Shown here one piece after another: positions 1 through 51,184 of a stretch of 64,000 nucleotides of DNA. The notes below the pieces were generated by a model. It was not told where the DNA came from. It did not search any database and saw nothing but the letters and a program-made list of their open reading frames with translations. Numbering within the stretch: the stretch's first letter is position 1; every line of letters begins with the position of its first letter. The DNA comes from Pogonophryne albipinna (taxonomy: Eukaryota; Chordata; Actinopteri; Perciformes; Artedidraconidae), in NCBI GenBank assembly GCA_028583405.1, contig CM053246.1:22974412-23038411 (forward strand), in the 5' to 3' direction. A program made the translations under genes and the position numbers.

Positions 1-3000
1 GCCATACGATCCTCCTCCACCTCTACACTCACAAAGTGGACTTCCCCGTCATTGATCGCACTCTCCGCCTTCAGGCTCGCAAAGTTATTGAGTTGAACTG
101 TGACCTTGCCGTCCTCCAGCCACAGGTGCAGATACTGGCTGCTGCTGTTGGCGAGCGCCAGGAGGAGTCCGCTGTTCCTCCGTGTGCGCAGGAAGAGGGA
201 GATGGAGAGGCCATCACCCAGATCATCGGTGACAGTGAAAGATGCGTAACTTTGAGAGTCATCGGTTCCAAAGCGCGTCGTCACATGTTCTGCAAAAAAG
301 GTGAATAAGATTAGACCGCAAAATGTTTCAGATTAAAGACGAGAGAAAAGTGACTTGGTTGTTTGTAAGCTTTAGAAAAACACCTTCTTGACTTTTTCAG
401 CTATGCCATAGTGTAAGGTTTTATACATTTAAGGATGTATTTAACAGTTCGAAATAGGGAAAAGGAGGAAAAACCTAAAACTTGACCAAAGATATAAGAG
501 AGCTGGGGTGCATGTAACTTAATGTCACTATCCAGCACAGTACAAAAAGAGCTTACACTCACAAATCAAACTTGTAATAGCATTTATTCGTTTTTGTGTT
601 GTTTTTTCTGATCTGTGGAGAGCAAACTGTCCAAACCAAATATTAAAACGATACTGTAATTTCGATTGATTTAAATTCTAGCAGGATAAATGAACATGTA
701 GGGACTAATATTGACGCAGTTTATGTTGAGGTTTCTAGAAGAACAGGTAACTAAAGAGGACATTTCAGCAGCCACCAGCCCTCATGTTGTATTTCCCAGT
801 CAGCACTTTCCACTGTGGGATGATCACCTTATAAAGCAGCAAGGAGACTGGGAACACACAAAGTTAAAGCAGGGAGCACATGCAATGTGTGAAAGGTCAT
901 ATGACCAGGGTTCATGCATGTCGATGCTAGTGTACAGGTGAGCATTTGTTCACATGTGAGTAACCGTGTGTGATCGGTAATCTGCTTGGATACACTCAAG
1001 AGGCTATACATGTCCTCGGTGAACTGTTCAATATTACCAGGGGGAACGTGAGTGACTCATATAAACACTTTATCATTCTACTTGGTTATTTTAACGTGTT
1101 TTTAAATCAGAGTAATTAACAGTTTACTGTCTCCATGTTCTGTATATTTCCAAAATAGAATCCCTTATAACCTTAATCCAGTACGCCAGATAAGAGGATC
1201 TCTGCCTCCGTCCATTACTGTGTCTTTTTATTGGCCTGTACGTCCTTATCTCTTCTTAATCACCAGTAACTAGGTTGTATCTAATTAGCCTCTAGAGAAA
1301 TGTGGTGAGAGTGACCTGCTATATTCCCCTCCAATCTCAAAGTTGAAAGAGATCTATATCTGCTTTTGGTGATTTTATATCTCAAACTTCAAAAAAGTGT
1401 TTTACTTAGCATTGCTGCTATTTGACTGTCCTGCTAAAGTCTATTAGTTGATTACTGAAAACATACCCTCCTCACAGTCCTGCCCCTCATAAGGCCTTGG
1501 ACATCGGCACTGGTAGCTCTGCCACAGGTTGACACACTGTCCTCCATTTTGGCAAGGTACATCCAGGCAGCGGTCCCTGTGGCTGCAGCCGGGGGACACA
1601 TTAACAGCAGAGTCGCTCAGCCATTCCCCGGGGACAATGAGCTGCCAGTCCACAAACACATCCCGCATGCATCCAATGAATGCTAGAAGTGGAGAGACCT
1701 CACCCGGGGCATTTAAGTCCTGAAGCACTCCTCCAATAAAAGTGTTCTGAGGAGGTGACACCAGCCTGGCCATGGTGCTTTGGACTGAGGCCACCTGGTG
1801 ACATGACTGGCTCCCACAGCTCCCATTATCATCCAAGAGAGTCAAACTGAGCATCCAGCTCCCCAGCACTGCTTCCACAGTGTGCCACTCTCCATCTGTG
1901 ACATTGTGTGGAAGCTCCAGGACCTGGCTTGGGCTCTCTGCTTCATCCCCAGCAGAGGCCTCCTTCCTGAGTGTGAGACGAAGCTGCCCCTCGTGCAGCT
2001 CCAGACTCAACAGCAGCCCCCTGCTGTTACTCTGGAACAACAACGCTCTTGGTAGAGATGTCTTGAAGCTGAGGGTAATGTTGCAGGACACCACAGCATC
2101 CACCAGGGGACTCTGCAGCAGCAGATAGCCTCTGCGCTCAAAGGAGAAGGTGGTGGGGGTCCCACACACGGGTCCAGTGTAACCAGGTGAGCAGGAACAG
2201 GTATATCCATTAAACCCATCCAACAGGAAAGGAGAGCAGGAGCCTTGGTTCTCACATTTATGTCCCTCACAGCCTTCTATCCTCACATCACAGTTTACAC
2301 CTCCATAGAGGACGCCATCATGACTCTGTTTTTGGCAGTGGCACATGTAACCTCCAACATGGCTCTCACAACTGCCCCCATTGTGGCAGGGACTGGGGTC
2401 ACACTGGTCTATCACCTCCTGGCAGAGGGAACCTGTAAGCAAAAGAAAGCAGAACAACTAATAAAACTCAAATCCCCTTAGACTGTGTTTCTGTCGTTAA
2501 ACAACTTACAGCTGCAGTGTTGGACTTTTCATGTTAATTCATTTCTGTTTCATTCTAGACCTTGACAAACAAGTTCACACAATGCTGATAAAGCCTATCG
2601 CTGCAAAGTGAAGTTGTGGTGTCTGTTGTCGGTGGCGACTGTCCCACTGGTCCCGCTGGTGCAAGTATGCCTGCATGTGAACTGGCTCACTGCACTTCCT
2701 CCGCCCCAAACGGTACTCTTAAACTTTTAATGTGAACCTTTTTAGAAGACCAGTAGGATCTATTGGTTATTCATCATAATGTTTCCATCTAAGGATTTTT
2801 GTTTTTGTTAGCTTAGAATAAGCCTTTTACATCTACATGGAGCAGGTCGTCTTCACTGCAATCCGCCATTTAAGTTGTTAATGTTACCTAAAGGACAATG
2901 TGTGGAAGCGGAGGGGTATTCAGCTGTTTTCCAATCTGCGACCTCACCATTAGATGCCTCTTAGTCTTGCTCTTTTTATCCTTCCTCTTAATGCTGATTT

Positions 3001-6000
3001 TCTTTTTTATCTTAAGCTTCTAATCAAAAAACTTGCACCAAGTTTGACTCACAGGATGTTGAATTTGCCTGCATCCATCCCTTTTGCTCTCTGTGTTACC
3101 ATTTTGCAAATGCACCAATGCAGTATCTTGTGCTTGGTGTCACACAAAAAAGAACCAGTGTGGTTTTTCCACTGAAATGTGTGCAAAATTGAATCCTAAA
3201 ACCCGCCAATGAGTAAGCATTTGGTTCCCTTGTCTTGAAGTCAATCGTTTTTGCCTGAAATGTGTGGTTAAGTAAGCTTAGAAGAGATTTTCACATTTTG
3301 TTCTACCTTATTAAGTGTGTCAGTAAATACCCCAATTGAGAACCTGGGACATTTGACGACCTTAAAAACGATTGCTAACAAGTGGTTAAATTAGACTACT
3401 TCAAAAATTATCATGACAAACCCTAGTCATCCTTTAGCTTAGCGGTGTTGACATTAAGTCAAGCGTCCTTGATGTCCTGTAGTATATTTCTAGCCAAACA
3501 TTACATTCACGCTATAGAAATCATAAAAGCTTTTATTTATGATCTTGCTGAACAAAACATGTAATGTCTTGTTGGCCCGTAGATTATTTTCTGCAATAAT
3601 CCAAAACCCAAATAAAATAATTCCAGTGACTTTTTGTCAAGGGAATGAATATAATGGTAATTTTCTGGGACGGCCTAGAAAAGGATGTCATCCTTGCAGT
3701 GTCATTATTCCTTGTTCAGTGGTGTTGTAGGAAATAGATCTCCCTGTTTACAACCATCAAGTCACACTCATCCACTTGTAATAGGCTATAATTGGGGCCT
3801 AACACACAACGTTAAATTTGCCCGAGCAGAAGTCAAATTGTCAGGTATTTAAACCAGTGTTCAATACTTGTGGGGTGTATTACTCTTTACAACGGTTAAT
3901 TGTCCATGTCTTGCGCATTTAATATTATCTGAAAGCTTTGTTAATTTTTGTGCATGTTTTTATCTCCAGAAATGTACGTGTGGTTATGCTATATGCTGTA
4001 TACAGTATGCATCAGCATTTTAAATTTGTGATGTAGAAAAGTGGTTGGATTTTAAAGCTAAAATGAATGCAATGAGTAGGCCCTTTGCCATATGATGCAA
4101 CAACTATAGATTATATAGTACAACACAGGAAATTGTAGAACAATTAAGTTTCAGCATGTATTTGTTCAATATTGGTATAAGAACCCGCAAAAGAAAAAAA
4201 GAATGAAATACCTATTATGTATAAAACCTTTACTAAATATCTATTAATAAAAAACGGTCCTTGTTATTACCTGTTCCAAGCAATACAATCCCCCAAATCC
4301 ATGGTGCGGGTGTCCACATCATGCAGTCACCTTTTCCTCCAGGATAGCCCCAGAATCCTCTAACTGCAACATATTAGTTTGTGTGTGTCCATGCCATCCC
4401 AGTGGAGGTCTGCTCCTTGTCTACCTCGCTACAACAATGTAGGGCTGAGTGGTTCTAGTCAGGAGACCAGCAAAGCCAGATCCTGGGGATTAGGCTAATG
4501 CTATTTGTCCACCTTACTGAATCAGTAACACAGTGACTGGCAGATAGTCAATTTTTAGAACACAACTCTCAGCAGGCAGCAGCTCACCGTCTTATCTACA
4601 TAGTAAGATCAAGTCTTGTGTAATCAGAAAACTGTAATTTTCTGCCTTTGCAACTGAAAAGTATAATCTGATGTAACAACCTGAACCTGCCATAGGAAAA
4701 ATCTTCTCTTGACTACAATGCACCATACAGTACAATATACTGTGAAAGTGTAAATGTGGTAAATGTAATATGGATTATTCATATGACCTGCAGACAAAAT
4801 GTCATAAACCCAACTACTAATTTAGGTAATTTGTTATATGATAGTATCAGTTGTACCTCACCTTATCACTCAAACTTGAAACTACACACAACAGTATGGC
4901 AGCGAGACAAAAATACGTACATAAAACATACATAATATAACACGGAAAACTGTGTGACTATAACATCACAGATAAAATAAAATAAAAGTGTTTTGTATTC
5001 TACCACTGGGGGGCGCTAACCAATCAGATTGGCAATAGCAAACCTTACTCTCACAATGCTTCCCTGGAATCCCCTGCTGGAACAGACTGACCTTTAACAG
5101 CTTTGATTGAATAGCCTCATTGTTTGCCTCACCTGTTATGTTGTGAAGGTATATATGTGTGTCCATTTTAGATACATTTGCCAGTCTATTTATATATAGA
5201 TTTATATTCTATATTTTGAATATGTATTTTGAATAATAGCCATATATTCTTATTTTTGGATTTACCCTCTCAACTTGCTATTGCTTCCATTTGAAACTGT
5301 GTAAGTTTCCTGCTCAGACATCTTACTGTGCATATTAATAGACCCGTGAAAGACATAATGATAATGTAATTACCTGTAGTTCCTGGAGGACAGCTGCAGA
5401 TGTAGCCCGCAGCATGCTGCTGGTCATAGTGTTCGGGCAGCAGAGGCTCGCTGCCATACAGAGGCTGCCACGACCTCTCCATGCAGCGGCCTCCATGCAT
5501 GCAGGGCTGGCTGCCACACTCGTTGATGTCAATATCACACTGACGCCCCTCAAACCCTGGAATGTTAGACAGTTAGAAAGTGTTGGCCATTTGAAAAATG
5601 TTTGCGTTTTAACACACATAACTTATTATACATACAAATAATATCACGTGTTGATTAAGTAAATTACTCAGAACTTATGTTTGAATGAGGCTTCATGCAG
5701 CTGTAAGCTTAATTAATTAATCGTTTTACTTGGCACCGCCGTGAGTGGCAGCCTGTTTAGCAGCTCTCCTTTGTTTCTACTTTTTCTTGTCTTTTCTCAA
5801 TTTTGTTTCACTACTAATACTTTTTATTGGAGTTAATTGTAAATGTTGGGACACTGATTTCCAACTTGTATATATTATTGGTTTTTATCACACATACATA
5901 TAAATATATTTAACAATCCGGACTCAAATATGTTTATATGTTCATTTAATTAATTTCTTATTTTAACAGTTACTTACCTGTATATAATTGTAATTGTATC

Positions 6001-9000
6001 TTTAATTGTATTAATCTTGAGTGAATCTGTGCTGTCCTGTTCTTCAATATCACCCTGTTGCTGCTTAAACTCCTGAATTTCCCCACAGGGATTAATAAAG
6101 GTCTATTTTATCTTATCTTATTTTAATTATGGTCGGATTCATTTTTAAAGGGGACATAATGCTAATTTTCGGTTTCATAGTTATATATTAGGTTTCTACT
6201 AGCTTTAATGTAATGTTTACAATGTGGGACCTTTTAGCATACTTCTGTCCTTGCCAAATCATTCAACAGCAGATATTTCGACTCATTCTCTGCTCACAAA
6301 TTCATTTTTCATCTGATCTGTTTTTGCCAGACCCATATCTCTTGATATTTAAGATACATACCTTTTAAAACTTCAAAAGCTGTAACTAAGAAATACATTG
6401 TTTTCCCTAATATTTGATCCAGAGAAGTGCTTCATGTACCTGGCCAGCAGTCACAGCTGTAGTCACCCTGGTTGTCCTGGCAGGTGGCGCTGTTGAAGCA
6501 GGGGTCAGAGAGGCAGGCTGGGAGTGGGGTCTCACAGTGTCTGCCAGTGAAGGCTGGGTGAGAGCAGTCACAGCTGGAGCTAAAACAAGCAAGGATTCAC
6601 AAATCACATGAGGTAAATGAATAAGAGTATTTCCTCCACGCTTTGTTTGTAAGTCGAAACATATTAGGAAATCTGTACAGTACAAAACCATTTGTCTTTT
6701 AACACTTGGCAAGAGATACAATATTTTATTTCCAGCGACTAGAGATGTGCCACTTACTCGTTCACCCCATCTATACACAGCGCCCCATTTTGGCATGGCT
6801 GCTCTTGGCACTCGTCAATGTTGATTTCGCATTGGTGTCCTTGGAAACCGGGCAGGCAGGTGCAAGTGAAGCCACCAGCGTAGTCGTGGCAACTACCGCC
6901 ATTGAGACATGGCTGTGATTGACACTCATCAATCTGGACCTCACAAATGGCCCCTGTGAACATCAAAGCAGGACAGATGTCAGAGGGCGAGTGGGCTTGC
7001 TGCATAGACTGAGGGCAGGGGGCAAAAATGGACAAAGCTTTCATGTGTACTGGCTGTGATCATGTGTGGATTGCTCCTTTTATTTCAAAGCGCGGCTTCT
7101 GCAGCAGCTCTAAAACCAGTATATTGTGTACAATACAAATGTATCGACAAATGTATCTCTGCAATAAAGATATCCTATCATCTTTATGCTTAATGCTTTC
7201 AAGCTCCTTTCAGCAGACTGATACAATGGGGTTTAACTAGTTCATCTATTCTTCATTGGGTAGATTTATTTTTAGATTTTAAAATGAAATCAAGACATCA
7301 GTGTAGGGAAGATTTCAAAGTAAACATTAACTACTCCGGATGACTATAAATAATTGTATTTAACTTCCACTTGGCCAGTTTTCTATGACAACAAGAATCT
7401 ATAGCCATGCTAGCTGTGACCACATGGGTGACCTATACAACATTTCACACATTAAAAAACAATCCCACACATATCTTCTATCATAAAAGCTACGTGTTAT
7501 GTTAGGATTTAAATTAGCTAGTCTCATTGTTGCTCCTGGGAGACCCAGAATGTATTTTTTTTCCCTCACCAGTGAACCCAGGAGAACACAGACAGGAGAA
7601 CCGGCCCACTCGGTCCACGCAGGTAGCTCCGTTCCTGCAGGGCTGTGAGGCACACTCATTCACGTCGATCTGACAGTGTGCACCTTGAAACCCCGGCACA
7701 CAGAAGCACGAGTAGTCGTCTCTGCGGATCCTGCATATCGCACTGTTCTGGCACGGGTTTGGTGAGCACTGGTCCACTGGTGAACGCGGCCTGTCAGGAG
7801 ATGCACCTATAAAGTGATCAAATTAAAAAATACTGATATCACGGAATATAATTTCTTTAATCTTGATACTGCAGATTAACAGAATCTTGATTGCTATATT
7901 AGTTTAATCATTTCTGCAATAAAGCTCATTTATTTTCTGTTTAAATTAGATGAGAAACAATGTAGCAGCTGTCAGTACAAGGACTTTAAACTTAAGGGTC
8001 TCTCAAGGCGTTATGGCTGGCTGCCATGGTAACTTATTTAACTGTTTGGCTTCAGTGTTCAATCTGTTACCATGGCAATTGCATGAACAGAAGATCTGAG
8101 GCGACACTTTACGGTGTGCTTTAATCAGCAAGACATCAATGCCACGCTGACAGAGGTTTAGGTGTCAATTCATTGAACACATGCTGTTCATACTAATAAG
8201 AGGATCAACACTTGATCCTTCCCAATAACAACAATGAAAAGCAATCATTGTATCTTTATAGATTAGATAATGTCGTAAATAGATATGTATATTTCCAAAC
8301 CTTAATATGTCTAGAACTGTGTTAGGAAAGTCATATTTAGCTTGGAAGTTATGGGAGCAACAACTCACAAAGTGGAATGTGCGGTAGTATAAGGATAGTA
8401 TTTTCTGTAATCTTGACAGCTAACTTGTCAAATCTTTAAAAAAACATTTTTGAGATAACTTGATTTCAATGGATTTCCAACATCATGATTTTATAAAGTT
8501 AAAATAATGTTTTAAATGGTTAAACAATGTACCACTGTGATCGGATGACCACACTTCTTAAAACCTCTTATCTCTGATGATGCATTGCTTATATTTAATG
8601 TCTACATTGAGACTTGTACAGCTCTTACATATGCAAGAAAACTTCAAAGACAAATAGGTACCAAAAGGAATCTCAATATTGCCTTACTCCAGTCAGAACA
8701 ACTGGCTCCAGAAGCAACGGTCCTCATAATACATGGAACACGCATGAGGGGCCACAGGGGCATGATGCCACTACAAAGACACTTCAAATCAGTTTAACAA
8801 GTGTTGCCTCTATTAATAATCAGACTGTACCACATTTCTTAAAGAAAAAGTGTGTTTTGCATGAGGGGTGCAAGCATGATTCGTCATAATCATGAAAAAT
8901 AAATGTAGCAACACTGATATGAGCAGAGATATTCTAATAAAATCCTCACAGATGATAATCACACACAGTAATCATGCCTCAAGAGCACAATCAGGCAGAG

Positions 9001-10249
9001 TGCAGACTATAAGAGAAGAGAGCAATTACACTTTGTGCTCCATCTGCACCAACTCGGGCACCAATTTTTCTTCTGTCTTTGGTTAAGGTCAATCAATTCC
9101 CCAGTCAGTTGGCAGGGTTCTCCCCGAGCAGATTATAATACATGTCTAGATGTATAGGTATAGTCCGAGGTCCTGGGGTGGGATGCAGATCATGGGTTGT
9201 GTTTATGTTCTGACCATATGCCAAAATGATCTTTCATTACAACCAGGATCAGCCAAGTAAATTCAGAAGGCATGCTCCAGCAGTGCATACATTATAAAAA
9301 CACATGACTTAAAACCATGGTGAAAGAAATTGGCAAGGACTATCTGTGTATTATTTTAAAGGAAACCACAACAGGTGGTGTAGTATTTGCTCTTTACTGA
9401 ATCCGCTGGTCTTTCAGTATTGCCCTGGGGCAGAGTTCAGAGGAGAGATAGGCCAAGATGGAACTCCAGCCAACCACACATCCCCTACCACAGCATGTAA
9501 GGCTTTTTCATATGCTAATGAGCTCTACGGGGCTTTGTTTGGTCCTATCTGGAGGCCCTCAAATGGCACATGTGAGGCACCTGACAGATGCATGTTTCTG
9601 TGTAGCTGTCTGTTTGTTTCAGAGGTGATAAGAAGACATGTTATTGTTGGATGTTTTGTAAAGCCGAAGACACATATAGTGCCATCGACCCATCACTTAT
9701 CGATATACCCACCAACCCCCCAATCCTCAAACACACCCTAGGGTCACTATGCTGCCCCCCATTGTTAGATTCCTTTCTGTCCTTACAAAATGTAGACATC
9801 ACTATGCGATGATGTAAACCCTCACAGTCTTAATTGATATTCCAAGCATGGACTGGTTAAAATACAAGCCAATTACTCGACTGAAATTAAAATCACAGTG
9901 CTGGTTTCAATCTCTACACCGTTAAAATGAAACTTTAGCAAGAAAGTTATAATATTTGACTTATATTTTAATTAGTGTTGTAACTTGCATGCATGAGAAA
10001 ATTGATAATTATAGTATGCAACAACAATCTAGTTTTGCAGGTGTTGAAATGCCAACAAAAAAAAATGAAAAAAAAGCACTGATGATCAGTTTACTTTTAT
10101 ATAGCTACAACATCACATCACACGTTTTTATGGTAGCTTACATTAACTCAAGGGAGATGAAACAATTACTCACCATCTATCACAAACAGTGAAGAGATTA
10201 CAATTGTGCATGCAAGTAATTCCAAATTATGATAGTGAATTAAATCCAT
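1..10249 (-). CDS. crb1: Crumbs-family cell polarity protein, 5' part (crb1-like)
   Basis: Crumbs proteins are single-pass apical membrane proteins that organise the Crumbs-Pals1-Patj complex in epithelia and photoreceptors. Seven coding exons read on the minus strand: 10249-10174 (signal peptide, start codon at 10249), 7806-7570, 6953-6758, 6579-6440, 5556-5374, 2432-1467 and 289-1 (runs off the window). All boundaries are GT-AG and phases join without a break, mostly phase 1 as usual for EGF modules. The roughly 695 residues give a signal peptide, eight EGF-like repeats (several with calcium-binding DxNEC or DxDEC starts), a laminin-G domain and another EGF (both in the large exon 6), then the start of a second laminin-G domain. 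The C-terminal laminin-G, EGF, transmembrane and short cytoplasmic parts lie beyond the left edge. The choice of crb1 over crb2 rests on exon layout and is inferred. Only two EGF repeats are visible in exon 2. Confidence 0.88.
4271..4322 (-). CDS. crb1: Candidate alternative first exon of the crumbs gene, encoding a signal peptide
   Basis: Between crumbs exons 5 and 6, two adjacent ATG codons (4322-4317) open a 17-codon reading frame, [17 protein letters not shown], that ends in phase 1 at a GTAATA donor (4270). Exon 6 starts in phase 1, so joining gives a hydrophobic leader followed directly by GSLCQE and the EGF domains of exon 6. This has the form of a secretion signal. Mammalian CRB1 has a photoreceptor-enriched isoform, CRB1-B, with its own 5' exon that skips the early EGF repeats; this exon has the position and content expected for a fish counterpart. 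A possible acceptor (TTGCAG) lies before the frame and the frame is open from there, so an ordinary cassette exon is the alternative. No transcript evidence is available here. Confidence 0.6.
4487..4492 (+). promoter_or_regulatory. OTX/CRX-type homeodomain site upstream of the candidate alternative first exon
   Basis: GGATTA (reverse complement TAATCC) is the core bound by the photoreceptor factors CRX and OTX2. It lies about 165 bp upstream of the alternative ATG. A second GGATTA is at 4772-4777. The 6-base core is common by chance, so this only supports, and does not prove, a retinal promoter. Confidence 0.3.
5003..5018 (+). promoter_or_regulatory. CTCF-like motif in crumbs intron 5
   Basis: CCACTGGGGGGCGCTA closely matches the core CTCF consensus (CCASYAGRKGGCRS type). 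It lies between exon 5 and the candidate alternative first exon. Single motif match; binding is not shown. Confidence 0.35.
6045..6124 (+). repeat. Interspersed retroposon tail in crumbs intron 4
   Basis: The segment has the fish retroposon 3'-end form, with CCCCACAGGGATTAATAAAGG followed by a TCTTA-type short repeat. Similar tails occur in the opposite orientation near 45.26, 46.07 and 60.79 kb. The family is not assigned. Confidence 0.55.
7807..10173. other. Crumbs intron 1, no additional feature seen
   Basis: I looked on the minus strand for further cysteine-spaced EGF exons with usable splice sites and phase 1 and found none. This means exon 2 carries only two EGF repeats in this assembly. 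The segment is AT-rich and looks like ordinary intron. Confidence 0.5.
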
Positions 10250-11069: not shown

Positions 11070-20519
<9,450 letters not shown>

Positions 20520-21363: not shown

Positions 21364-24300
21364 CTACCCTCTCCTTCTACAGCTGGGAGGAGGTGGGGGT
21401 AGGGATGAGAGGTCAGGGGTCACGCTGAGGAGATCGGGGGGGATTGGAAGGACCAGGGCTGGTTGGAGCAGACGGAGGGAAGCCCTGAACCCCTCCCAGG
21501 CATCTCTCTCCCCTTCTGCTGCTTTCACCTGGTGGAGGGAAGTATACTGCTGTTGGAAACATGCTAGCTTTACGAATGCACAAATGGTCTCTCTGGCCGA
21601 GGTAAACATCAGTTGGAAGGCTAAACCAAGGCCAAGCTCTGGGCTGAAAAAACATTACAAGATGATTTAAGATGAAAACTGAAACCATGTTGCATTGAAT
21701 GTGTTGCAAGGTATTGATCAGAAAGAATCAGAAAGGTATTATGATTCTGATTCTGGACAGAGATAATAAGTATTTTATACTACCATTAGGTAACTTTGAT
21801 CATTTGTTTTTTGTGGGAACCATACAATCCATTAACATTAAAAAAATGTTGTAATATAAAACAATAAACATACAACTTAAAAAAGCTGGTATACAGTGGT
21901 TACTCACTCTGACCTGGCGTTGTCTCTTGGCCTCGGCCTCGGCAGCCAGACTCTGCTGTAACTCCACAGGAAAACTGAGCTCGTCTCTGACAGAAAATCA
22001 AACACAAGCCTGGTCAGCAGGAAAATCACAGTACACCACAAATCACTACATTCATCCTTGCTGTTTACCAGGAAAAATCAAAGCTTTCAGAGGAACAAGA
22101 CTTTGCACACAATACTTTATGCTATTTTTGACAGTTGATAACCTGTTTTAATAATAATATATTTTATTTATTAATCGCTTTATCAAGTGCTCAAAGACAC
22201 CTATCTTTTGGACTGACAGGTCATCATCCTATTTTCATATATTCAAGTGTTCAACATAAATGGTCACCCAGTGTAGGAGGCGCAGCAAAACCTCACTCTA
22301 CCCCCACAGTCAAATGTAGACCAACTGTCATTGCTTCCACATGAAGTAATGTGCTTTGCGATTTTTTTTTTTATTTCTTCCAGTGGAATTCCCCAGCTGA
22401 GACAGATCCAGCCGAGGAAGGTTAATTAGAAATACATGATATTTTGTATCTTCAGTCTTACATGTCTGCTCTCTCCACCCTGATGCCCCAGCGGCAAGCA
22501 ACAGAGTCAACCGCTGCCTGTATCTGCTGTCCGATCCTCCTCCTGTGCAGCAGGATGTGGCTGAACGTGTGTTGGGCGAGGATGTCTCTGACCATGGCCT
22601 GGACCAGAGTCTGCAGCACTGTGGTCAGACTGGACAGGGCCGTGCTGCACAGAGCCACGTTCTCAATCTGGTAATAACACACTGCGCTCAGCTCGGGCCT
22701 CACCATGTCCTTCGTCACCACCTGGGTAAAGACATACGAGAATTAAGTAGCCTAATCCAATTAAAGCCTTGTCACTGTCTGTTTAATTAGTTTAGCAGGG
22801 GGCCGCTTCCTTTACTAATCATCCTAAAAGGTTAAGAAACACTGTGAGAAAGATAAAACTTCTGGGAAGACGCATTAGAGAAAGTTACTGGCTGATAAAA
22901 TGTCCAGCCATATAAAATACGTTAAATCTCTTTGTGGACTTTGAAAAATGTACTGTATGCTCAGGGAAAGCAACATTAATATACAAAACACATAATTAAT
23001 TACCATATTTAATTCATTTTCCTTTATTTAAAAATGTTGTGCTTAATGTGAATATGTCAGTTTTTCAGTGTTGAACCCTGGAACACTCAAAAATTATATA
23101 ATAATAATATGAATACAATGTAATGCAATTATTAATAAAATGGGGTGTGTGTGTGTGTCTACAGAAGGTCCAGTTGTGATAGACACGGTTCGCCACTGCA
23201 GTTTTGGTTTGTTTGTGGTTATTTACCGTGTGAGGAGGAACCTTGAGCATTTGTAGTCGGATATCAACTTTGTGACACACATCAAGGAGTGGGAGGTAGA
23301 AAAGAAGGCCTGAAAATAGAAGTAAGATGGGTTTCATCTCAGGACAGATTTATATTTTAAATATATATATATTGAATAATATAATTAATTTTATTATGAC
23401 TTTGACAAAAACTTTAGAACTGACTTATGGGGTCAATGCTTTACATTATTTGACTTTATGATCACTAGCCATCCAAAACGCACAGTAATTAAATCCACAG
23501 AAATATCAGGCAACTGTTTTGCATTAAACACTCAGTAGTTGGTGAGAACCTGGTCCTCTGGGTCTTCCTCGCAGGAGGTGACCCAGTCTGAAGATCACAG
23601 CTCTCTCATGCTCCCTCACTACCTGTCAATCAAAATGACAGACATGAGTCAGTCCATGTGAAGGGGAGACAGTCATGGCTGCAGTATTCTGCTCAAATAC
23701 CAAAGCTGTTAGTGGTCCAAGTGTCAATAAGGCCAGTTTTATGCAAGGCTTTTGGACACTAACAGTCAGAATGTGACAGTACATAGATACATTGTTTTTG
23801 CGTGAGTAGTAAACACATTGGATTAGAAATAAGAAATATATATGACGTGAAGGTACTGACTTCCGCAATTCCCGATATTAACTAATTTGTCCAAATATTT
23901 TACTTCCTGTCAAAGTGAAAAAGGTTAAAACAACATTAATCCTCAGACTAAACTTTAACGATAACATTATCACACTTTAATTTCTCCATCACAAACTGCA
24001 TCTGCCCAGTTGTTAATCCTTGAATCTTTTTTATGTAGATTATTATGAGGTGTTTCTTTTGTAGGTCTGTGGTGTGGTGTAGTTCCTACTTTGACACAGA
24101 ACCAAATGGAAATGGGGAGGACGAGAAGAACCAGAGCAAAGACGAAGACCATCAGCATCCACTCAAACACTCCCAGGTTTTTGCGCTTCAGACCTGCAAA
24201 GATCCACACTACTTATTATGGAGCAATTCCAACCAGATACTCAGATTAAACATATTTAAGAGTCATTTTCCAATTTTTTTTGTCTGATTTGTCTAATAAA

Positions 24301-24731
24301 TGCTGGAATAGAAGTGGAATTAACTAATTGAATTTATTTATATCATTACTATCTTAAATATCTCCAGAACAACAAGCTGGGAAAAACTTTTCTTCATGCT
24401 TTGATTTACCGTCCTCCTGCTCTGCTGCCTCCAGGAGCCCCAGGTTGTCCTCCTTGACCACCTCCTCTCTCACGCTGTCTATGTCCACCACAGTGGAACT
24501 CACCTTCACTTCTGTCTCCTGCTCCACCTTTACCTCATTGGTCTCTGTCTGTTTCTCCTTTTTCTGTCTCTCTTTTCTCACCGAAGACGCCTCCGGGACC
24601 CGTCCTGCCTTTGATGGCCTTTGTCTGTGACTTCTAGGAGGCAGTGAGGCTCCGCTGTCCCTCTCCTTCCTGGGTGTCATTCTAGATCTCGGTGGGAGAC
24701 CGGGGTGGACATGATCAGAAGACTTATCCAT
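21364..24731 (-). CDS. nphs2: Podocin, stomatin/PHB-family slit-diaphragm protein
   Basis: Podocin is a hairpin membrane protein that scaffolds nephrin at the kidney slit diaphragm. Coding exons on the minus strand: 24731-24410, 24193-24090, 23622-23550, 23309-23227, 22721-22462, 21986-21908 and 21528-21364, giving 361 residues. The N-terminus is charged and cytosolic. The hairpin segment is FVFALVLLVLPISIWFCVKV and keeps the central proline. The PHB domain follows (VREHERAVIFRLGHLL, FYLPLLDVCHKVDIRLQML, VALCSTALSSLTTVLQTL). The last exon begins VKAAEGERDAWEGF, as in stomatins, and ends LVLPIPPDLLSV plus a Pro-rich tail. The conserved stretch expected between these, with the family's LRYLxTL motif, is absent, and the total is about 22 residues shorter than I recall for human podocin (383). 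The start is the first ATG of a long open frame. The neighbour axdnd1 supports orthology. Confidence 0.92.
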
Positions 24732-25211
24732 ACTGGCTGTGCAGTTAAAAGCATATGAGTGATGTCTGTTGGGGTGCTTCAGCTATATGGGTTAGTGGAC
24801 GGTTTCCTTTTGTAGAGAAAGCAGAAAGCAAGGAGAAATGTTTTGATTTGTTCTGCTGTGAGTTCTTCCTCAGACTTAAGGTCTGTGAGATGAGTCAGTG
24901 CGGCTGCCGTCCACTGTCAGAATACATGTGAGATAAATTAGGCTTGACTGTTTGAATGTGGGAGTAGCACAGCGGTGGGAGTGACACTTACCACCCTCTC
25001 TATTGTGGTGATAAGTTGTACCCTGTACCTTAGCCAATACAATTTAAATCGAAAGAAAACAAAACACTTCTGTATGTAGCACTTAGAAAGGTTTGGCTTA
25101 TTTGAATCCAATGCAGAAGCACTAAGAATGGCTAGGCCTATTGAAAGCTGAAGTACTTGAAAGATTCTTGCTATTTTAAGTTTGTGTCATCATGATTGCT
25201 CTTATTATCAA
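24732..25211. other. nphs2 upstream region
   Basis: This unique sequence between the podocin start codon and the assembly gap presumably holds the promoter and 5' UTR. I saw no strong TATA box and no other reading frame worth reporting. Confidence 0.4.
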
Positions 25212-26047
25212 NNNNNNNNNNNNNNNNNNNNNNNNNNNNNNNNNNNNNNNNNNNNNNNNNNNNNNNNNNNNNNNNNNNNNNNNNNNNNNNNNNNNNNNNN
25301 NNNNNNNNNNNNNNNNNNNNNNNNNNNNNNNNNNNNNNNNNNNNNNNNNNNNNNNNNNNNNNNNNNNNNNNNNNNNNNNNNNNNNNNNNNNNNNNNNNNN
25401 NNNNNNNNNNNNNNNNNNNNNNNNNNNNNNNNNNNNNNNNNNNNNNNNNNNNNNNNNNNNNNNNNNNNNNNNNNNNNNNNNNNNNNNNNNNNNNNNNNNN
25501 NNNNNNNNNNNNNNNNNNNNNNNNNNNNNNNNNNNNNNNNNNNNNNNNNNNNNNNNNNNNNNNNNNNNNNNNNNNNNNNNNNNNNNNNNNNNNNNNNNNN
25601 NNNNNNNNNNNNNNNNNNNNNNNNNNNNNNNNNNNNNNNNNNNNNNNNNNNNNNNNNNNNNNNNNNNNNNNNNNNNNNNNNNNNNNNNNNNNNNNNNNNN
25701 NNNNNNNNNNNNNNNNNNNNNNNNNNNNNNNNNNNNNNNNNNNNNNNNNNNNNNNNNNNNNNNNNNNNNNNNNNNNNNNNNNNNNNNNNNNNNNNNNNNN
25801 NNNNNNNNNNNNNNNNNNNNNNNNNNNNNNNNNNNNNNNNNNNNNNNNNNNNNNNNNNNNNNNNNNNNNNNNNNNNNNNNNNNNNNNNNNNNNNNNNNNN
25901 NNNNNNNNNNNNNNNNNNNNNNNNNNNNNNNNNNNNNNNNNNNNNNNNNNNNNNNNNNNNNNNNNNNNNNNNNNNNNNNNNNNNNNNNNNNNNNNNNNNN
26001 NNNNNNNNNNNNNNNNNNNNNNNNNNNNNNNNNNNNNNNNNNNNNNN
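25212..26047. other. Assembly gap (836 N)
   Basis: A run of N that ends directly on sequence belonging to the tandem array. The gap probably hides the true left edge of the array and perhaps more copies. Reading frames that cross it are meaningless. Confidence 1.
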
Positions 26048-26869
26048 TCAGGATGATCACCGCAAGTAATAAAACCCAACAAGCATATATTTCACTCATA
26101 CGGTAGGGACTTGAAATTGCGAGAACATTAAAACATTCATTAATAACTGCGAAAATATCCACAATTTTAAATACATTTTTATAATATACCAATTATTTTC
26201 AAAATGTGCTGTGCTCAAATGTTAGATCCCTGACTCCTTCTGCTCATGTGTCAAAGTGTCCTTTGGGTGAGACTCTTAACACCAAAATGCTACCTCGATC
26301 AATCGAGCAATTTGCAGGGTAGTGTTCTGCTATAAGTGCTTATGTGTGAGTGGTGACAATTGAAACATATTTATTTTTTGAAATCCCAAACATCACTTTC
26401 AATGTTCCAGTTCCTGTCCAGAAATACCATACCATATATTTAAAAGATAAATAAAATACAGATTTCAGTATTCTGAGCCCTGACTCTCTTCCTCATGGAC
26501 GGCAAAAAACATCAGACATTATACAATAATAATAACAAAGTAAAAACAATAATTGTAGCTTGAGATGGAGTAAGACAAATATTGATAAGCCACACAGCTT
26601 CTGCTTCTGCTTTCCCCTCTTTATAATTTGGGTTCTCATAATTTCCACCCTATTCCAAGGGGAAGCATGATGGTGCCTTTTCTTTCAATTTCTGGCTTTG
26701 TGTTTCTTCACCTCTTACTCGTTTAATATTTTGGAGAGTGCATTTACGTAGTCACGTTCTGCCTCTCTTCCTCTGTTTCTGGCTGTTCTTTTCATACCCT
26801 TGTTTCTCTGAGAAGAGAGAAATACTATTCTAAAAAGGGACATTCATGACCCACTCTGTTCAATTGCAG

Positions 26870-27313
26870 GTTACAGAAGGGATCCATACTGGCGAGCTGG
26901 AGAGCATCCATTCTTTGTATACAAAGTACGTTCCAAAGCGCAAGAAGTTCACGGAGGAGAGCTTTCAGGCACGCCTTCGCCTCGCTGCATTGGATCACAA
27001 CCACAACATCGATCGTGAGCAGGCACAGACCAAGAAGGGGGCACTGCAGTTCAAACTGCAGTACTCGAAGCCTGCTGGAGGATATGTGGTGAAGGCGATG
27101 AAGACACCAAAAAGCTACAACTTCCGAAGAGAAATCATGGTCGGGGTAGTCGATAGGTGTTTATCAGCATCGTCCATGAGGTCCGAACTTGCAGAACACC
27201 GTCATACAGATGCAGAGAAGGAGAAAAGGACACTTGGTGCGCATAAAGGCCTGGTAAAACCATCGAAGGAGGATGCTGTGGCACACCACCTAAGTCGATT
27301 TGTGAACAAGTAA
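26870..27313 (+). pseudogene. Terminal exon of a transposase-like protein, array copy A
   Basis: Following a TTGCAG acceptor, an open frame of 147 codons runs to TAA, then an AATAAATAAAG poly(A) signal about 55 bp on. It begins VTEGIHTGELESIHSLYTKY and continues VPKRKKFTEESFQARLRLAA and LDHNHNIDREQAQTKKG. This resembles, from memory, the C-terminal part of a large family of uncharacterised fish and cnidarian proteins, often with an N-terminal THAP finger, where the motif T-G-x-L-E-x-x-H-S may include the last acidic residue of an RNase-H-like transposase core. No upstream exons occur in the unit, so this is a truncated gene unless they lie in the gap. Confidence 0.6.
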
Positions 27314-27686
27314 TGTCGGTCTCTATGTGTCTGTCGTATATATGAAGTCAGCCTGTGGGGCTCTGTGGCAAATAAATAAAGGACGTCTATGGCTGAAGTA
27401 ATATATGCTGGTAGTATTTGTATATTATTATTTGAAGGGTAAAAACATAGCTTGGTTCAGGAAAATGGTCTTTATTACTTTATGAACATCGAGCACTGAA
27501 AAACATTTGTAGAATCTAGTGAGATACATGTATATGCTTGATAATATAAGTTGTAAATACTGTTCTGATATATCACAAACATTGTATGAATGGTTCCATT
27601 ATCAAAGTAGAATTTTCTTCGCTAGCCTAAATGTCACGATTTCACTGTCAAAGATTTTCCTTCCATGCATGGAATCATTGGTCACA

Positions 27687-28444
27687 TCATATCCCTCCAG
27701 AATATTCAAATCCTTTGTAGGTTACTGATGGGTAGTGACTTCGTATCCAATTCACAACACAGGCAGGTATCGGCACTCTGTTCCCTTTTCCAAGGAAACC
27801 TCTAGTCCAGATGGTGAATTGCCGAAAAGCTGTTAGTCTGTAGAGGCTGAAATAAATAGGATACACCTATAAATACAAATCATTTAATTTAAAACAATTA
27901 TATATTTTTAAATAGGGCCTACACTTACTCGCTATTTATTGGTCGTTCGAGGGTTGCTGCACGCACGTCTCGTAGCGATACCATTGCGATCGCCAACATA
28001 TCATTCTCGATGGAAACCATAGGGAACAGTCGGTGTTCCATGATACACTGGAGATTATTCCCGTCTGAATTGAGCATGTGGTCGATACCAATTCCCCTGC
28101 AACATCTACATTCATTTTCCGATGGCATAACCACACAATTGTTACATGTACACCAATCTGTGTTGTCCATTCGTCCCGGGTTTTGAGCAACATCTTCTTC
28201 CTCTGAGACCGAGTCGGTACTGGAAACTGGTGGTATCCCACTCGGCGAGTTCAGAACCGTCGGTACTTTCGGCGGATTCCGGATCGTATGCCACTCTAGT
28301 ATTTGACCGAATCGGTTCATAAGCATAGGCCATGGGATGCCTGGTAACTGTAGATGCTTCCACATCAATGTCATCTCCCGACGAATAGTCAAATTCATCG
28401 TTCAAAACGCCGATCTCATTACAAAATTCCTCCAACGCTGCCAT
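27687..28444 (-). pseudogene. P2X7 C-terminal (ballast) domain gene, array copy A, frameshifted
   Basis: Same two-exon gene as the intact copy B: exon 1 28444-27929, exon 2 27846-27687. Near 28223 this copy has GGAAACTGG where copy B has GGAACTGG. The extra base shifts the frame after the acidic N-terminal part ([17 protein letters not shown]), before the cysteine-rich domain. Splice sites and exon 2 are otherwise intact. A sequencing or assembly error cannot be excluded next to a gap. Confidence 0.7.
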
Positions 28445-29678
28445 ATCTGCTACGTTGTGTTGACTTCCGGTATGGATACCCGGAGCGAGGACCCACACAG
28501 TGACGTCACCATTTGGGACTCCCCTAATGGCAGCGGCCTGGTCCTTGGTATTCCCCACCCGGCCGGCGGATAATTAATTTTCTTTTGGCGAGTAATATCA
28601 TATACAATAAATATTACGATCAATATCCATTGTAAAATGAATAAACTACCGGAATATTAAAGCTGTAATGGTGTTTCCTTTCCCCTTTAATGTGTACATG
28701 CTTTTTGGTGTCAATAGCATCATGGGGGCCATCTGCTGCAGAAAATACACACAATTAAGAGATCCTGGAGAGATAGACTTTTTTTTTTTTTTAATCTAGT
28801 GTCAATAAAGTGGTGTTAGAGGAATCAGTTCACAGTGCAAGGATGACAAATATCCTTCATTCAGGATGATCACCGCAAGTAATAAAACCCAACAAGCATA
28901 TATTTCACTCATACGGTAGGGACTTGAAATTGCGAGAACATTAAAACATTCATTAATAACTGCGAAATATCCACAATTTTAAATACATTTTTTAATATAC
29001 CAATTATTTTCAAATGTGCTGTGCTCAAATGTTAGATCCCTGACTCCTTCTGCTCATGTGTCAAAGTGTCCTTGGGTGAGACTCTTAACACCAAAATGCT
29101 CCTCGATCAATCGAGCAATTTGCAGGGTAGTGTTCTGCTATAAGTGCTTATGTGTGAGTGGTGACAATTGAAACATATTTATTTTTTGAAATCCCAAACA
29201 TCACTTTCAATGTTCCAGTTCCTGTCCAGAAATACCATACCATATATTTAAAAGATAAATAAAATACAGATTTCAGTATTCTGAGCCCTGACTCTCTTCC
29301 TCATGGACGGCAAAAAACATCAGACATTATACAATAATAATAACAAAGTAAAAACAATAATTGTAGCTTGAGATGGAGTAAGACAAATATTGATAAGCCA
29401 CACAGCTTCTGCTTCTGCTTTCCCCTCTTTATAATTTGGGTCTTCATAATTTCCACCCTATTCCAAGGGGAAGCATGATGGTGCCTTTTCTTTTCAATTT
29501 CTGGCTTTGTGTTTCTTCACCTCTTACTCGTTTAATATTTTGGAGAGTGCATTTACGTAGTCACGTTCTGCCTCTCTTCCTCTGTTTCTGGCTGTTCTTT
29601 TCATACCCTTGTTTCTCTGAGAAGAGAAGAAATACTATTCTAAAAAGGACATTCATGACCCACTCTGTTCAATTGCAG

Positions 29679-30122
29679 GTTACAGAAGGGATCCATACTG
29701 GCGAGCTGGAGAGCATCCATTCTTTGTATACAAAGTACGTTCCAAAGCGCAAGAAGTTCACGGAGGAGAGCTTTCAGGCACGCCTTCGCCTCGCTGCATT
29801 GGATCACAACCACAACATCGATCGTGAGCAGGCACAGACCAAGAAGGGGGCACTGCAGTTCAAACTGCAGTACTCGAAGCCTGCTGGAGGATATGTGGTG
29901 AAGGCGATGAAGACACCAAAAAGCTACAACTTCCGAAGAGAAATCATGGTCGGGGTAGTCGATAGGTGTTTATCAGCATCGTCCATGAGGTCCGAACTTG
30001 CAGAACACCGTCATACAGATGCAGAGAAGGAGAAAAGGACACTTGGTGCGCATAAAGGCCTGGTAAAACCATCGAAGGAGGATGCTGTGGCACACCACCT
30101 AAGTCGATTTGTGAACAAGTAA
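29679..30122 (+). pseudogene. Terminal exon of a transposase-like protein, array copy B
   Basis: Same length and protein as copy A, with the same acceptor and poly(A) signal. The reading frame can be extended upstream to 29436, but that part is the intron and repeat DNA before the acceptor. Preservation of 147 codons in two copies is consistent either with a recent duplication or with constraint; the DNA is too similar to tell. Upstream exons are missing here too. Confidence 0.6.
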
Positions 30123-30495
30123 TGTCGGTCTCTATGTGTCTGTCGTATATATGAAGTCAGCCTGTGGGGCTCTGTGGCAAATAAATAAAGGACGTCTATG
30201 GCTGAAGTAATATATGCTGGTAGTATTTGTATATTATTATTTGAAGGGTAAAAACATAGCTTGGTTCAGGAAAATGGTCTTTATTACTTTATGAACATCG
30301 AGCACTGAAAAACATTTGTAGAATCTAGTGAGATACATGTATATGCTTGATAATATAAGTTGTAAATACTGTTCTGATATATCACAAACATTGTATGAAT
30401 GGTTCCATTATCAAAGTAGAATTTTCTTCGCTAGCCTAAATGTCACGATTTCACTGTCAAAGATTTTCCTTCCATGCATGGAATCATTGGTCACA

Positions 30496-31252
30496 TCATA
30501 TCCCTCCAGAATATTCAAATCCTTTGTAGGTTACTGATGGGTAGTGACTTCGTATCCGATTCACAACACAGGCATGTATCGGCACTCTGTTCCCTTTTCC
30601 AAGGAAACCTCTAGTCCAGATGGTGAATTGCCGATAAGCTGTTAGTCTGTAGAGGCTGAAATAAATAGGATACACCTATAAATACAAATCATTTAATTTA
30701 AAACAATTATATATTTTTAAATAGGGCCTACACTTACTCGCTATTTATTGGTCGTTCGAGGGTTGCTGCACGCACGTCTCGTAGCGATACCATTGCGATC
30801 GCCAACATATCATTCTCGATGGAAACCATAGGAAACAGTCGGTGTTCCATGATACACTGGAGATTATTCCCGTCTGAATTGAGCATGTGGTCGATACCAA
30901 TTCCCCTGCAACATCTACATTCATTTTCCGATGGCATAACCACACAATTGTTACATGTACACCAATCTGTGTTGTCCATTCGTCCCGGGTTTTGAGCAAC
31001 ATCTTCTTCCTCTGAGACCGAGTCGGTACTGGAACTGGTGGTATCCCACTCGGCGAGTTCAGAACCGTCGGTACTTTCGGCGGATTCCGGATCGTATGCC
31101 ACTCTAGTATTTGACCGAATCGGTTCATAAGCATAGGCCATGGGATGCCTGGTAACTGTAGATGCTTCCACATCAATGTCATCTCCCGACGAATAGTCAA
31201 ATTCATCGTTCAAAACGCCGATCTCATTACAAAATTCCTCCATCGCTGCCAT
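30496..31252 (-). CDS. P2X7 C-terminal (ballast) domain protein, intact array copy B
   Basis: A two-exon gene of 224 residues: exon 1 31252-30738, donor GTAAGT, exon 2 30655-30496, joined in phase 2. The N-terminal 90 or so residues are acidic ([13 protein letters not shown]). The rest matches the zinc-binding cytosolic ballast domain of the P2X7 receptor: [25 protein letters not shown], then [20 protein letters not shown] and VPIPACVVNWIR. No channel or transmembrane region is present. Free-standing ballast-domain genes are known to be numerous in fish, and P2X7 is thought to have captured one. I chose the start [10 protein letters not shown] at 31252; the frame stays open to 31414, but that part is not preserved in copy A and overlaps likely promoter motifs. 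It faces a transposase-like exon tail to tail. Confidence 0.8.
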
Positions 31253-31308
31253 ATCTGCTACGTTGTGTTGACTTCCGGTATGGATACCCGGAGCGAGGAC
31301 CCACACAG

Positions 31309-31316
31309 TGACGTCA
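31309..31316 (+). promoter_or_regulatory. CRE palindrome upstream of the ballast-domain gene
   Basis: TGACGTCA, a full CREB/ATF site, lies about 60 bp upstream of the chosen start codon in copy B and again in copy A at 28501-28508. An ETS-type CCGGAAG (minus strand) lies between it and the ATG, and the surroundings are GC-rich. Together these look like a small TATA-less promoter carried by each array unit. Confidence 0.5.
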
Positions 31317-31667
31317 CCATTTGGGACTCCCCTAATGGCCGCGGCCTGGTCCCGGTATTCCCCACCCGGCCGGCGGATAATTAATTTTCTTTTGGCGAGT
31401 AATATCATATACAATAAATATTACGATCAATATCCATTGTAAAATGAATAAACTACCGGAATATTAAAGCTTTAATGGTGTTTCCTTTCCCCTTTAATGT
31501 GTACATGCTTTTTGGTGTCAATAGCATCATGGGGGCCATCTGCTGCAGAAAATACACACAATTAAGAGATCCTGGAGAGATAGACTTTTTTTTTTTTTTA
31601 ATCTAGTGTCAATAAAGTGGTGTTAGAGGAATCAGTTCACAGTGCAAGGATGACAAATATCCTTCAT

Positions 31668-49717: not shown

Positions 49718-51184
49718 TCCATCCATCCATCTTCTCCCGCTTATCCGTGGTCGGGTCGCGGGGGTAGCAGTTCCAGCAGAGAGCCCCAAACTTTCTTTTC
49801 CCTGGCCACATCAACCAGCTCTGACTGGGGGATCCCAAGGCGCTCCCAGGCCAGCGAAGAGATATAATCCCTCCACCTGGTCCTAGGTCTACCCCTTGGT
49901 CTCTTCCCAGCTGGACGTGCCTGGAACACCTCCCTAGGGAGGCGCCCAGGTGGCATCCTTACTAGGTGCCTGAACCACCTCAACTGGCTCCTTTCGACGC
50001 GAAGGAGGAGCGGTTCAACTCCGAGTCCCTCCCGGATGACTGAACTTCTCACCTTATACCTAAGGGAGACACCAGCCACCCTGCGGAGAAAACCCATCCC
50101 GGCCGCTTGTATCCGCGATCTCGTTCTTTCGGTCATGACCCATCCTTCATGACCATAGGTGAGGGTAGGAACAAAAATGGCCCGGTAGACAGCGAGCTTT
50201 GCCTTCTGGCTTAGCTCCCTTTTCGTCACAACGGTGCGGTAAAGCGACTGCAGTACCGCTCCCGCTGCTCCGATTCTCCGGCCCATCTCACGCTCCATTG
50301 TTCCTTCACTCGAGAACAAGACACCGAGATACTTGAACTCCTTCACTTGGGGTAAGGATTCATTCCCTACTTGGAGTGGACAGTCCATCGGTTTCCTGCT
50401 GAGAACCATGGCCTCAGATTTGGAGGTGCTGATCCTCATCCCAGCCGCTTCACACTCGGTTGCGAACCGATCCAGTGAGTGCTGAAGGTCGCAGACCGAT
50501 GAAGCCTCTAGAACCACATCATCTGCAAAAAGCAGTGGTGCAAACCGAACTGCAGACCCCCTCCCCCACGACTACGCCTCGAAATCCGATCCATGTATAT
50601 TACAAACAGGATTGGTGACAAAGCGCAGCCCTGGCGGAGGCCAACCCTCACCGGAAATGGGTCCGGCTTACTGCCGAGGACCCGGACACAGCTCTCGCTT
50701 TGGGAGTACAGAGATTGGATGGCCCTGAGTAGAGACCCCCTCACTCCATACTCCCGCAGCACCTCCCACAGTAACTCCCTGGGAACTCCATCATACGCCT
50801 TCTCCAAGTCTATAAAACACATGTAGACCGGATAAGCGTACTCCCAGGCCCCCTCCAGGATCCTTTGCGAGAGTAAAAAGCTGATCCGTCGTTCCACGAC
50901 CAGGACGGATTCCGCATTGTTCCTCCTCAATCTGAGGTTCGACAATCGGCCTGACCCTCCTTTCGAGTACCTTAGAGTAAACTTTCTCGGGGAGGCTGAG
51001 TAGTGTGATGCCTCTGTAATTGGCACACACCCTCTGATCCCCCTTTTTAAAAAGGGGAACCACCATCCCGGTCTGCCACTCCTTCGGTACTGTTTCCGAC
51101 TTCCACGCAACGTTGATGAGACGTGTCAACCATGACAGTCCCTCAACACCCAGAGCCTTCAGCATTTCTGGGCGGATCTCTCTC
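49718..51184 (-). mobile_element. 5'-truncated non-LTR retrotransposon (LINE), 3' half of reverse transcriptase
   Basis: Minus-strand frames at 51165-50791, 51110-50508 and 50517-49741 together encode an endonuclease-type LINE reverse transcriptase: PKEWQTGMVVPLFKKGD, NYRGITLLS, CFIDLEKAYDGVPRELLW, LRQGCALSPILF, then the C-terminal KEFKYLGVLFSSEGTMEREM, GWVMTERTRSRIQAAGMGF and RPRGRPRTRWRDYI. Frame breaks separate the pieces and the YADD region is damaged, so it is inactive. The 3' end is a (GGAT)n tail, plus strand CCATCCATCCATCC. TAGTTTATTCCA is found on both sides (49706-49717 and 51185-51196), a 12-bp target-site duplication. The tandem-repeat tail suggests an RTE-like clade, but clade assignment is uncertain. 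Confidence 0.92.

What the first reader, a model, noticed from the sequence alone, without database searches (positions are those of the whole stretch)
4271..4322. Fish counterpart of an alternative 5' exon (CRB1-B-like) in the crumbs gene
A 17-codon, signal-peptide-like exon in the phase of exon 6 sits immediately upstream of exon 6, in intron 5. Used as a first exon it would give a crumbs protein with its own leader, skipping five upstream exons and five or six EGF repeats. Mammals have such an isoform (CRB1-B) in photoreceptors. If this is the same exon, the two-promoter design dates back to the fish-tetrapod ancestor.
Basis: partly seen in the sequence, partly recalled or inferred. Interest (0 to 1): 0.78.

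Follow-up and report, generated by a model that had tools for sequence, protein, structure and literature searches.

The report
Fish crb1 photoreceptor-type first exon
This fish crb1 gene has a real second starting exon matching the short photoreceptor form (CRB1-B) known in mammals, and the same fish carries a second crb1 gene that appears to make only that short form, so nature seems to have separated the two versions of a human blindness gene.

Summary
The exon is real. On the minus strand, 4322-4271 encodes [17 protein letters not shown] plus one base and joins exon 6 (2432-1467) in phase. The gene is crb1. In 21 teleost crb1 records this leader is the protein's N-terminus (8-20 of 20 residues identical; 20/20 in Eleginops). 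Three short intron-free contigs from other fish carry both leader and CRB1-B-type tail. The window's own genome holds that tail too, as read-through of the exon-11 donor. CRB1-B and its conservation in vertebrates were already published (PMC7335077).

New here: a second teleost gene, "crb1-like", sister to crb1. In this genome it has a similar leader (identical donor 9-mer), the B tail, and no detectable long-form exons within 27 kb upstream or long-form tails within 18.6 kb downstream. All 34 non-eel crb1-like records held are short-form (a length-filtered search). Both genes share a 13-bp word, GCATTAGCCTAAT, 179 and 157 bp before the ATG (8 of 2000 simulated pairs share one as long), at an OTX/CRX-type TAATCC. 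Transcription start and photoreceptor expression remain untested.

The parts
4271..4322 (-). CRB1-B-type first coding exon: ATG to donor, 17 codons + 1 nt ([18 protein letters not shown])
   Evidence: in phase with exon 6; N-terminus of 21 teleost crb1 records, identical in Eleginops
4489..4501 (-). 13-bp word GCATTAGCCTAAT, overlapping TAATCC, 179 bp upstream of the ATG; the same word lies 157 bp upstream of the ATG of the paralogous B exon on contig C10 (putative promoter element)
   Evidence: shared word >=13 in 8 of 2000 simulated pairs and 3 of 1296 real 500-nt piece pairs
1467..2432 (-). exon 6 (966 nt), first exon shared by the long (A) and short (B) forms; EGF repeats and the first laminin G domain
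5374..5556 (-). exon 5 of the long form, skipped by the B form
6440..6579 (-). exon 4 of the long form
6758..6953 (-). exon 3 of the long form
7570..7806 (-). exon 2 of the long form
10174..10249 (-). exon 1 of the long form (A leader [26 protein letters not shown])
1..289 (-). 5' part of exon 7, cut by the window edge; the gene continues on C5 below 22974412 (L009)

Best explanation
The 52-nt exon is the first coding exon of the short, photoreceptor-type transcript of crb1 (the fish CRB1-B). A second promoter in intron 5 starts the transcript. The exon supplies a new leader that replaces exons 1-5 and about six EGF repeats, and it is spliced in phase 1 to exon 6. At the other end, the exon-11 donor (GAC|GTAAGC) is read through instead of used, giving a different transmembrane and cytoplasmic tail without the ERLI end. 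Shown: the exon, its phase, its conservation as an N-terminus, both ends in this genome, and both ends together in intron-free contigs of other fish. Inferred: promoter activity, leader cleavage, and photoreceptor expression.
For: Exon, phase and in-frame upstream stop. Best named hits are fish crumbs homolog 1, with P0002 (Eleginops) identical over the leader. 21 of the 128 teleost crb1 records held start with the leader. Three records on contigs of 3,240, 5,872 and 3,538 nt (P0078, P0081, P0098) carry leader plus B tail. The B tail reads straight on from exon 11 in this genome. B-type tails occur in a bird, squamates and coelacanth. A paralogue in the same genome has a leader exon at the same position and phase, with the same donor 9-mer. 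A 13-bp upstream word is shared by the two genes. Published CRB1-B has this anatomy: exons 5c to 11 (PMC8657784 passages), own 5' and 3' ends and a putative own promoter (PMC7335077 passages).
Against: No RNA from this species was examined. Most leader records are gene models, and 9 of 21 join the leader to an A-type tail (7 ERLI, 2 ERLV), so the coupling of the two ends is not strict in annotation. The leader varies among teleosts (8-20 of 20 identical). No mammalian CRB1-B leader was available to align. No promoter assay was possible.
Confidence: 0.93

Rival explanations
1. It is an alternative first exon, but not coupled to the B tail: fish use it with whichever 3' end is chosen, so it is not CRB1-B as a unit.
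For: 9 of 21 leader records end in A-type tails and 5 in neither type; 10 of 128 crb1 records have a long-form start with a B tail.
Against: The three cDNA-like contigs all combine leader and B tail; in the paralogue 28 of 34 records have just that combination. Gene models may mix ends freely.
Confidence: 0.2
2. It is (part of) an internal cassette exon between exons 5 and 6.
For: An AG at 4363/4364 would open a 93-nt exon (4363-4271) that is in frame with exons 5 and 6 (sequence).
Against: That acceptor has 10 of 20 pyrimidines against 14-17 of 20 in the gene's six own acceptors in the window. None of the 232 crumbs records held has the leader internally, by three text patterns. In this genome's paralogue the corresponding exon is the only start found.
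Confidence: 0.04
3. It is the start of the crb2b short form (crb2b-sf), that is, the gene is crb2b.
For: Zebrafish crb2b also has an intronic start giving a short form (PMC7044448 passages).
Against: The tree puts this gene with teleost crb1, and crb2 outside with support 100. The genome has two separate crb2-type genes on C6 and C106, and the corresponding intron of each shows no comparable leader.
Confidence: 0.01
4. It is a chance open stretch.
For: 22 ATG-to-phase-1-donor candidates of similar size, itself included, exist on both strands of the window.
Against: All 17 residues, at the same junction, are the N-terminus of the Eleginops protein, and the leader recurs in 21 records.
Confidence: 0.01

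Closest known systems
CRB1-B isoform of mouse and human CRB1 (Ray et al. 2020, PMC7335077)
   Same: Same gene; alternative 5' exon upstream of exon 6; own leader; B-type tail ending the protein at exon 11; about 1000 aa.
   Different: The fish leader sequence could not be aligned to the mammalian one here. The fish gene skips about six EGF repeats. Fish crb1 also has a third tail ending in ERLV.
Teleost crb1-like gene (this genome C10:29485989-29500196; P0214 in Eleginops)
   Same: B-type leader in phase 1 before the same exon, donor CAG|GTAATA, B tail, shared 13-bp upstream word.
   Different: No detectable long-form exons or tails; the exon-11 donor site reads GTCAGC.
Zebrafish crb2b-sf
   Same: Short crumbs form made from an intronic start (PMC7044448).
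   Different: Different gene; no comparable leader found in the corresponding introns of this genome's crb2-type genes.

Membership tests
CRB1-B | the gene is CRB1 and not CRB2 | tested here: met
   Tree of 44 rows, crb2 outside at 100; best named hits are crumbs homolog 1
CRB1-B | alternative 5' exon in the intron before exon 6, in phase | tested here: met
CRB1-B | the exon encodes its own signal peptide | tested here: inconclusive
   No charged residue, hydrophobic core (best Kyte-Doolittle 9-mer 2.04, against 2.99 in the A leader); no signal-peptide predictor was available
CRB1-B | B-type transmembrane and cytoplasmic end in the same gene | tested here: met
   L009 5427-5182 minus, read-through of exon 11
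CRB1-B | unique 5' and 3' ends used together | tested here: inconclusive
   Three intron-free contigs of other fish have both; gene models mix ends; no RNA of this species
CRB1-B | own promoter upstream of the 5' exon | tested here: inconclusive
   Shared 13-bp element and TAATCC only; no assay
CRB1-B | expression in photoreceptors | not testable with these tools
   no expression data
CRB1-B | leader sequence homologous to the mammalian leader | not tested
   no mammalian B leader could be identified among the records returned
crb2b-sf | the gene is crb2b | tested here: not met

The most novel reading that the evidence does not exclude
After the teleost genome duplication the two transcription units inside CRB1 were sorted unequally. 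crb1 (this window) kept both starts and all tails. crb1-like lost the long-form exons, the A tails and a usable exon-11 donor, and became a dedicated CRB1-B gene in the teleosts sampled other than the eel. The B promoter is still recognisable in both by a shared homeodomain-type element (GCATTAGCCTAAT with TAATCC). If so, fish offer a natural separation of the photoreceptor isoform from the glial isoform of a human blindness gene.
Probability: 0.72. Interest if true: 0.75.

Novelty: new member of a known kind. Interest (0 to 1): 0.58.

Why it matters
CRB1 mutations cause Leber congenital amaurosis and retinitis pigmentosa, and the share of each isoform in disease is under discussion (PMC8657784 and PMC12692272, passages). 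A fish crb1 with both units, beside a separate gene that seems to be B only, lets the two forms be removed independently in one animal. It also means that fish crb1 alleles hitting early exons, such as the exon 2 allele icm31 in zebrafish (PMC6493769, passages), would be expected to spare any B form. This mirrors the mouse Crb1-ex1 allele, which does not impact Crb1-B (PMC7335077, passages).

Tried and rejected
Cassette exon: considered because a 93-nt in-frame exon is possible; set aside for its weak acceptor and absence from 232 records.

crb2b short form: rejected by the tree and by separate crb2-type genes. With donors scoring 5 or more in phase 1, the C6 intron (4,306 nt) had only unconvincing ATG-to-donor stretches and the C106 intron (668 nt) none. 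My idea that an intronic short-form start is older than the CRB1/CRB2 split therefore found no support here.

Palindrome TTACTGATTCAGTAA (4528-4514) as an NRL/MAF-type site (recalled): a lead only. The window holds 14 such palindromes, and it is not part of the longest word shared with the paralogue.

TAATCC alone is weak evidence: each of the two upstream regions also holds a second copy (-455 in crb1, -289 in crb1-like).

Leader similarity between crb1 (21 leaders) and crb1-like (26 leaders, of the 29 records with a leader-length start; three with unlike starts, P0194, P0210 and P0222, and five with other short starts were left out): mean BLOSUM62 score 10.0, against 0.6 for crb1 leaders with 38 A leaders picked by a text rule. 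But 54 of 2000 column shuffles reach it, so position and phase carry more weight than the letters.

Loss of the exon-11 donor seen through proteins: the residue coded by the donor GT is not valine in 7 of 33 crb1-like, 1 of 20 teleost crb1 and 0 of 8 non-teleost B tails. Fisher p is 0.06 for 7/33 against 1/28, suggestive only.

Mammalian CRB1-B leader: not obtained. The tetrapod records start elsewhere, the passages seen of the papers do not print it, and no supplement look-ups were allowed.

Genome-wide frequency of the 13-bp word: not completed; also, the pattern I sent would not have matched the crb1 copy, and I did not send a corrected one.

Splice scores use a donor frequency table recalled from memory.

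Full report
What is there. On the minus strand, 4322-4271 reads ATGATGTGGACACCC...GGAACAG followed by GTAATAAC: 17 codons and one base, ending in phase 1. Exon 6 starts at 2432 after TTTTGCTTACAG, so the joined protein reads [28 protein letters not shown]. The same junction with exon 5 gives [12 protein letters not shown]. An in-frame TAA lies 18 codons before the ATG. The long form's exons 1 to 5 are also in the window, joining in phase, and exon 7 runs off the window's low end.

Chance. In intron 5 (2,941 nt) this is the only stretch from an ATG to a phase-1 donor of at least this score and 12-40 codons. There are 22 such stretches, itself included, on both strands of the whole window, so sequence alone is only mildly surprising. 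Ten of 322 intronic GT sites of the gene, itself included, have a donor score as high or higher.

Relatives. A protein search with the leader-exon 6-exon 7 product gave 338 hits, of which 120 were listed. Nearly all named ones are fish "protein crumbs homolog 1" or "Crumbs cell polarity complex component 1"; several are unnamed or hypothetical, and P0108 also carries the label crumbs homolog 2. Adding the listed hits of two later searches, I held 232 records. A FastTree tree of all of them puts 128 in the teleost crb1 clade. In 105 of these the exon 6 part begins more than 45 residues from the start (long-form start), 21 begin with this leader and 2 have another short start. Eleginops is identical over 20 residues, three of them from exon 6; the other 20 leaders share 8 to 19 of 20. 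Of the 21 leader records, 7 end in the B-type tail (...WQNLFQLLSYLILRLDDEPEVDWG), 7 in ERLI, 2 in ERLV and 5 in something else. Three records with source label 'lgn' sit on contigs of 3,240, 5,872 and 3,538 nt with frames of 1,019, 1,028 and 1,029 residues. They carry the leader and the B tail together. In the window's genome the same span, leader to B tail, covers about 9.1 kb with introns. I therefore read those contigs as spliced RNA; that is an inference, since the tool does not say what 'lgn' is.

The other end of the gene. The window lies at C5:22974412-23038411 of its genome. The next 10 kb (L009) hold the rest of crb1. Exon 11 ends ...TGCCAGACGGAC|GTAAGCGACATT. If the donor is ignored, translation runs on as DVSDIYFYVAMLLWQNLFQLLSYLILSMDDEPEVDWGDID and stops. 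The V-S of the B tail is thus coded by the splice donor itself. Two further terminal exons follow, one ending in VERLV and one in PPPMERLI. B-type tails also occur in a swan, squamates and coelacanth, and the swan record joins a long-form start to a B tail.

A second gene. The bird-based, length-limited search (178 hits, 120 listed) turned up a group of about 1,000-aa teleost proteins, most of them named crumbs homolog 1-like. In a 44-row quick tree they form one clade (SH-aLRT 98) beside teleost crb1 (82, not starred), with sturgeon crb1 outside both (100 for the teleost pair), as a teleost-wide duplication would give. Of 35 members, the 34 outside the eel have the short architecture: 29 start 14-25 residues before exon 6 (a length rule; three of these have unlike letters), 5 have other short or incomplete starts, 33 carry the B tail and one is truncated. 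The single eel member (P0199) is long-form with an ERLI end. Twenty-five of the 34 carry an NCBI name without an isoform label (listing, my count), which by NCBI custom (recalled) means one annotated product. A caution: one search admitted only lengths of 408-1298 aa, so long-form crb1-like proteins could have been missed.

Test in the window's own genome. crb1-like lies on C10. I fetched 60 kb around it with no N. Its leader exon is at 29485989-29486037, 16 codons plus one base (MWRFSVHVWTLWLLFA|G), with donor CAG|GTAATA, the same nine bases as the crb1 B exon; in-frame TGA codons lie 13 and 16 codons upstream. No tblastn match (E up to 1e-3) to long-form exons 1-5 of crb1, or to the upstream parts of the eel and tarpon proteins, occurs in the 27.2 kb upstream. 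A text pattern for EGF repeats, run on the plus strand only, gave three hits there that do not look like EGF repeats. No match to either A tail occurs in the 60 kb. The position of the exon-11 donor reads GAT|GTCAGC (score 2.74 against 5.96 in crb1; frequency table recalled), and its codon still gives valine. An ORF with a BTB domain and one with C2H2 fingers lie upstream; from memory this resembles ZBTB41, the neighbour of human CRB1, which I did not test.

A shared upstream element. I had noted TAATCC upstream of the crb1 B exon before finding the paralogue (note). The two 500-nt upstream regions share one 13-base word, GCATTAGCCTAAT, on the same strand, at -179 (crb1) and -157 (crb1-like). 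TAATCC overlaps the end of the word in crb1 (-170) and lies three bases further along in crb1-like (-145); each region also has a second TAATCC elsewhere. Simulated pairs share a word that long in 8 of 2000 cases, and within 25 nt of equal distance in 1 of 2000; of 1,296 real 500-nt piece pairs from the two loci, 3 share one (simple repeats left out). TAATCC is the OTX/CRX-type core (recalled), fitting a photoreceptor promoter, but no activity is shown.

What is known. CRB1-B is described in mouse and human retina, with its own 5' and 3' ends, a putative promoter and photoreceptor expression. The authors state conservation of both ends across vertebrate species, and their methods map zebrafish data (PMC7335077, passages; the figures and supplement were not seen). 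Human CRB1-B has seven exons, 5c to 11 (PMC8657784, passages), which fits the read-through of exon 11 seen here. Zebrafish crb2b has an intronic start for a short form (PMC7044448, passages), but that is a different gene, and the matching introns of this genome's crb2-type genes show no such leader. I found no paper on a B-only crb1 duplicate in fish in the listings, which cover open-licence papers only.

Verdict. The exon is the fish CRB1-B first exon. That is a new member of a known kind. The stronger result is the B-only paralogue, which makes the division of CRB1 into two transcription units visible as two genes.

Noticed in passing
L009 1390-1153 minus (C5:22965801-22965564): A third alternative crb1 3' exon with a TM-like segment and a tail ending VERLV; 18 of 128 teleost crb1 records end this way. 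Its relation to the ERLI tail was not examined.
   Followed up: partly
4363-4271 minus: An AG upstream would open a 93-nt exon in frame with both neighbours, so cassette use cannot be excluded by frame alone.
   Followed up: yes
4528-4514 minus: 15-bp palindrome TTACTGATTCAGTAA, 12 bp upstream of the shared element; MAF/NRL-like by recall.
   Followed up: partly
P0095 (Coregonus), P0101 (Oncorhynchus): Salmonid records named crb1-like but nested in the crb1 clade; P0095 is short-form with the exon-11 donor valine replaced by isoleucine, perhaps a second, independent B-only copy after the salmonid duplication.
   Followed up: no
22458-22742 minus and 24354-24782 minus: Band_7 domain ORF resembling podocin/NPHS2, and an ORF that may be its N-terminal exon (names recalled).
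   Followed up: partly
13983-17839 plus: Coiled-coil-like ORFs of a gene on the opposite strand to crb1; AXDND1-like by recall, no Pfam match in the three ORFs tried.
   Followed up: partly
49741-51122 minus: Two reverse-transcriptase ORFs in different frames (RVT_1), a non-LTR-type element remnant.
   Followed up: no
26834-31420: At least two blocks about 2.8 kb apart repeat the same ORFs, with a hint of a third; one ORF has a below-cutoff P2RX7_C match. A likely repeat next to an assembly gap.
   Followed up: no
about 25208-26047: Run of N (836 N in the window), an assembly gap.
   Followed up: no
about 17000-17350: Long AC/GT dinucleotide repeat.
   Followed up: no
C10 L022 1837-4785 minus; L023 8199-9281 minus: Uninterrupted non-LTR retrotransposon-type ORF (983 aa) and Tc1/mariner-type transposase ORF (361 aa) near crb1-like.
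   Followed up: no
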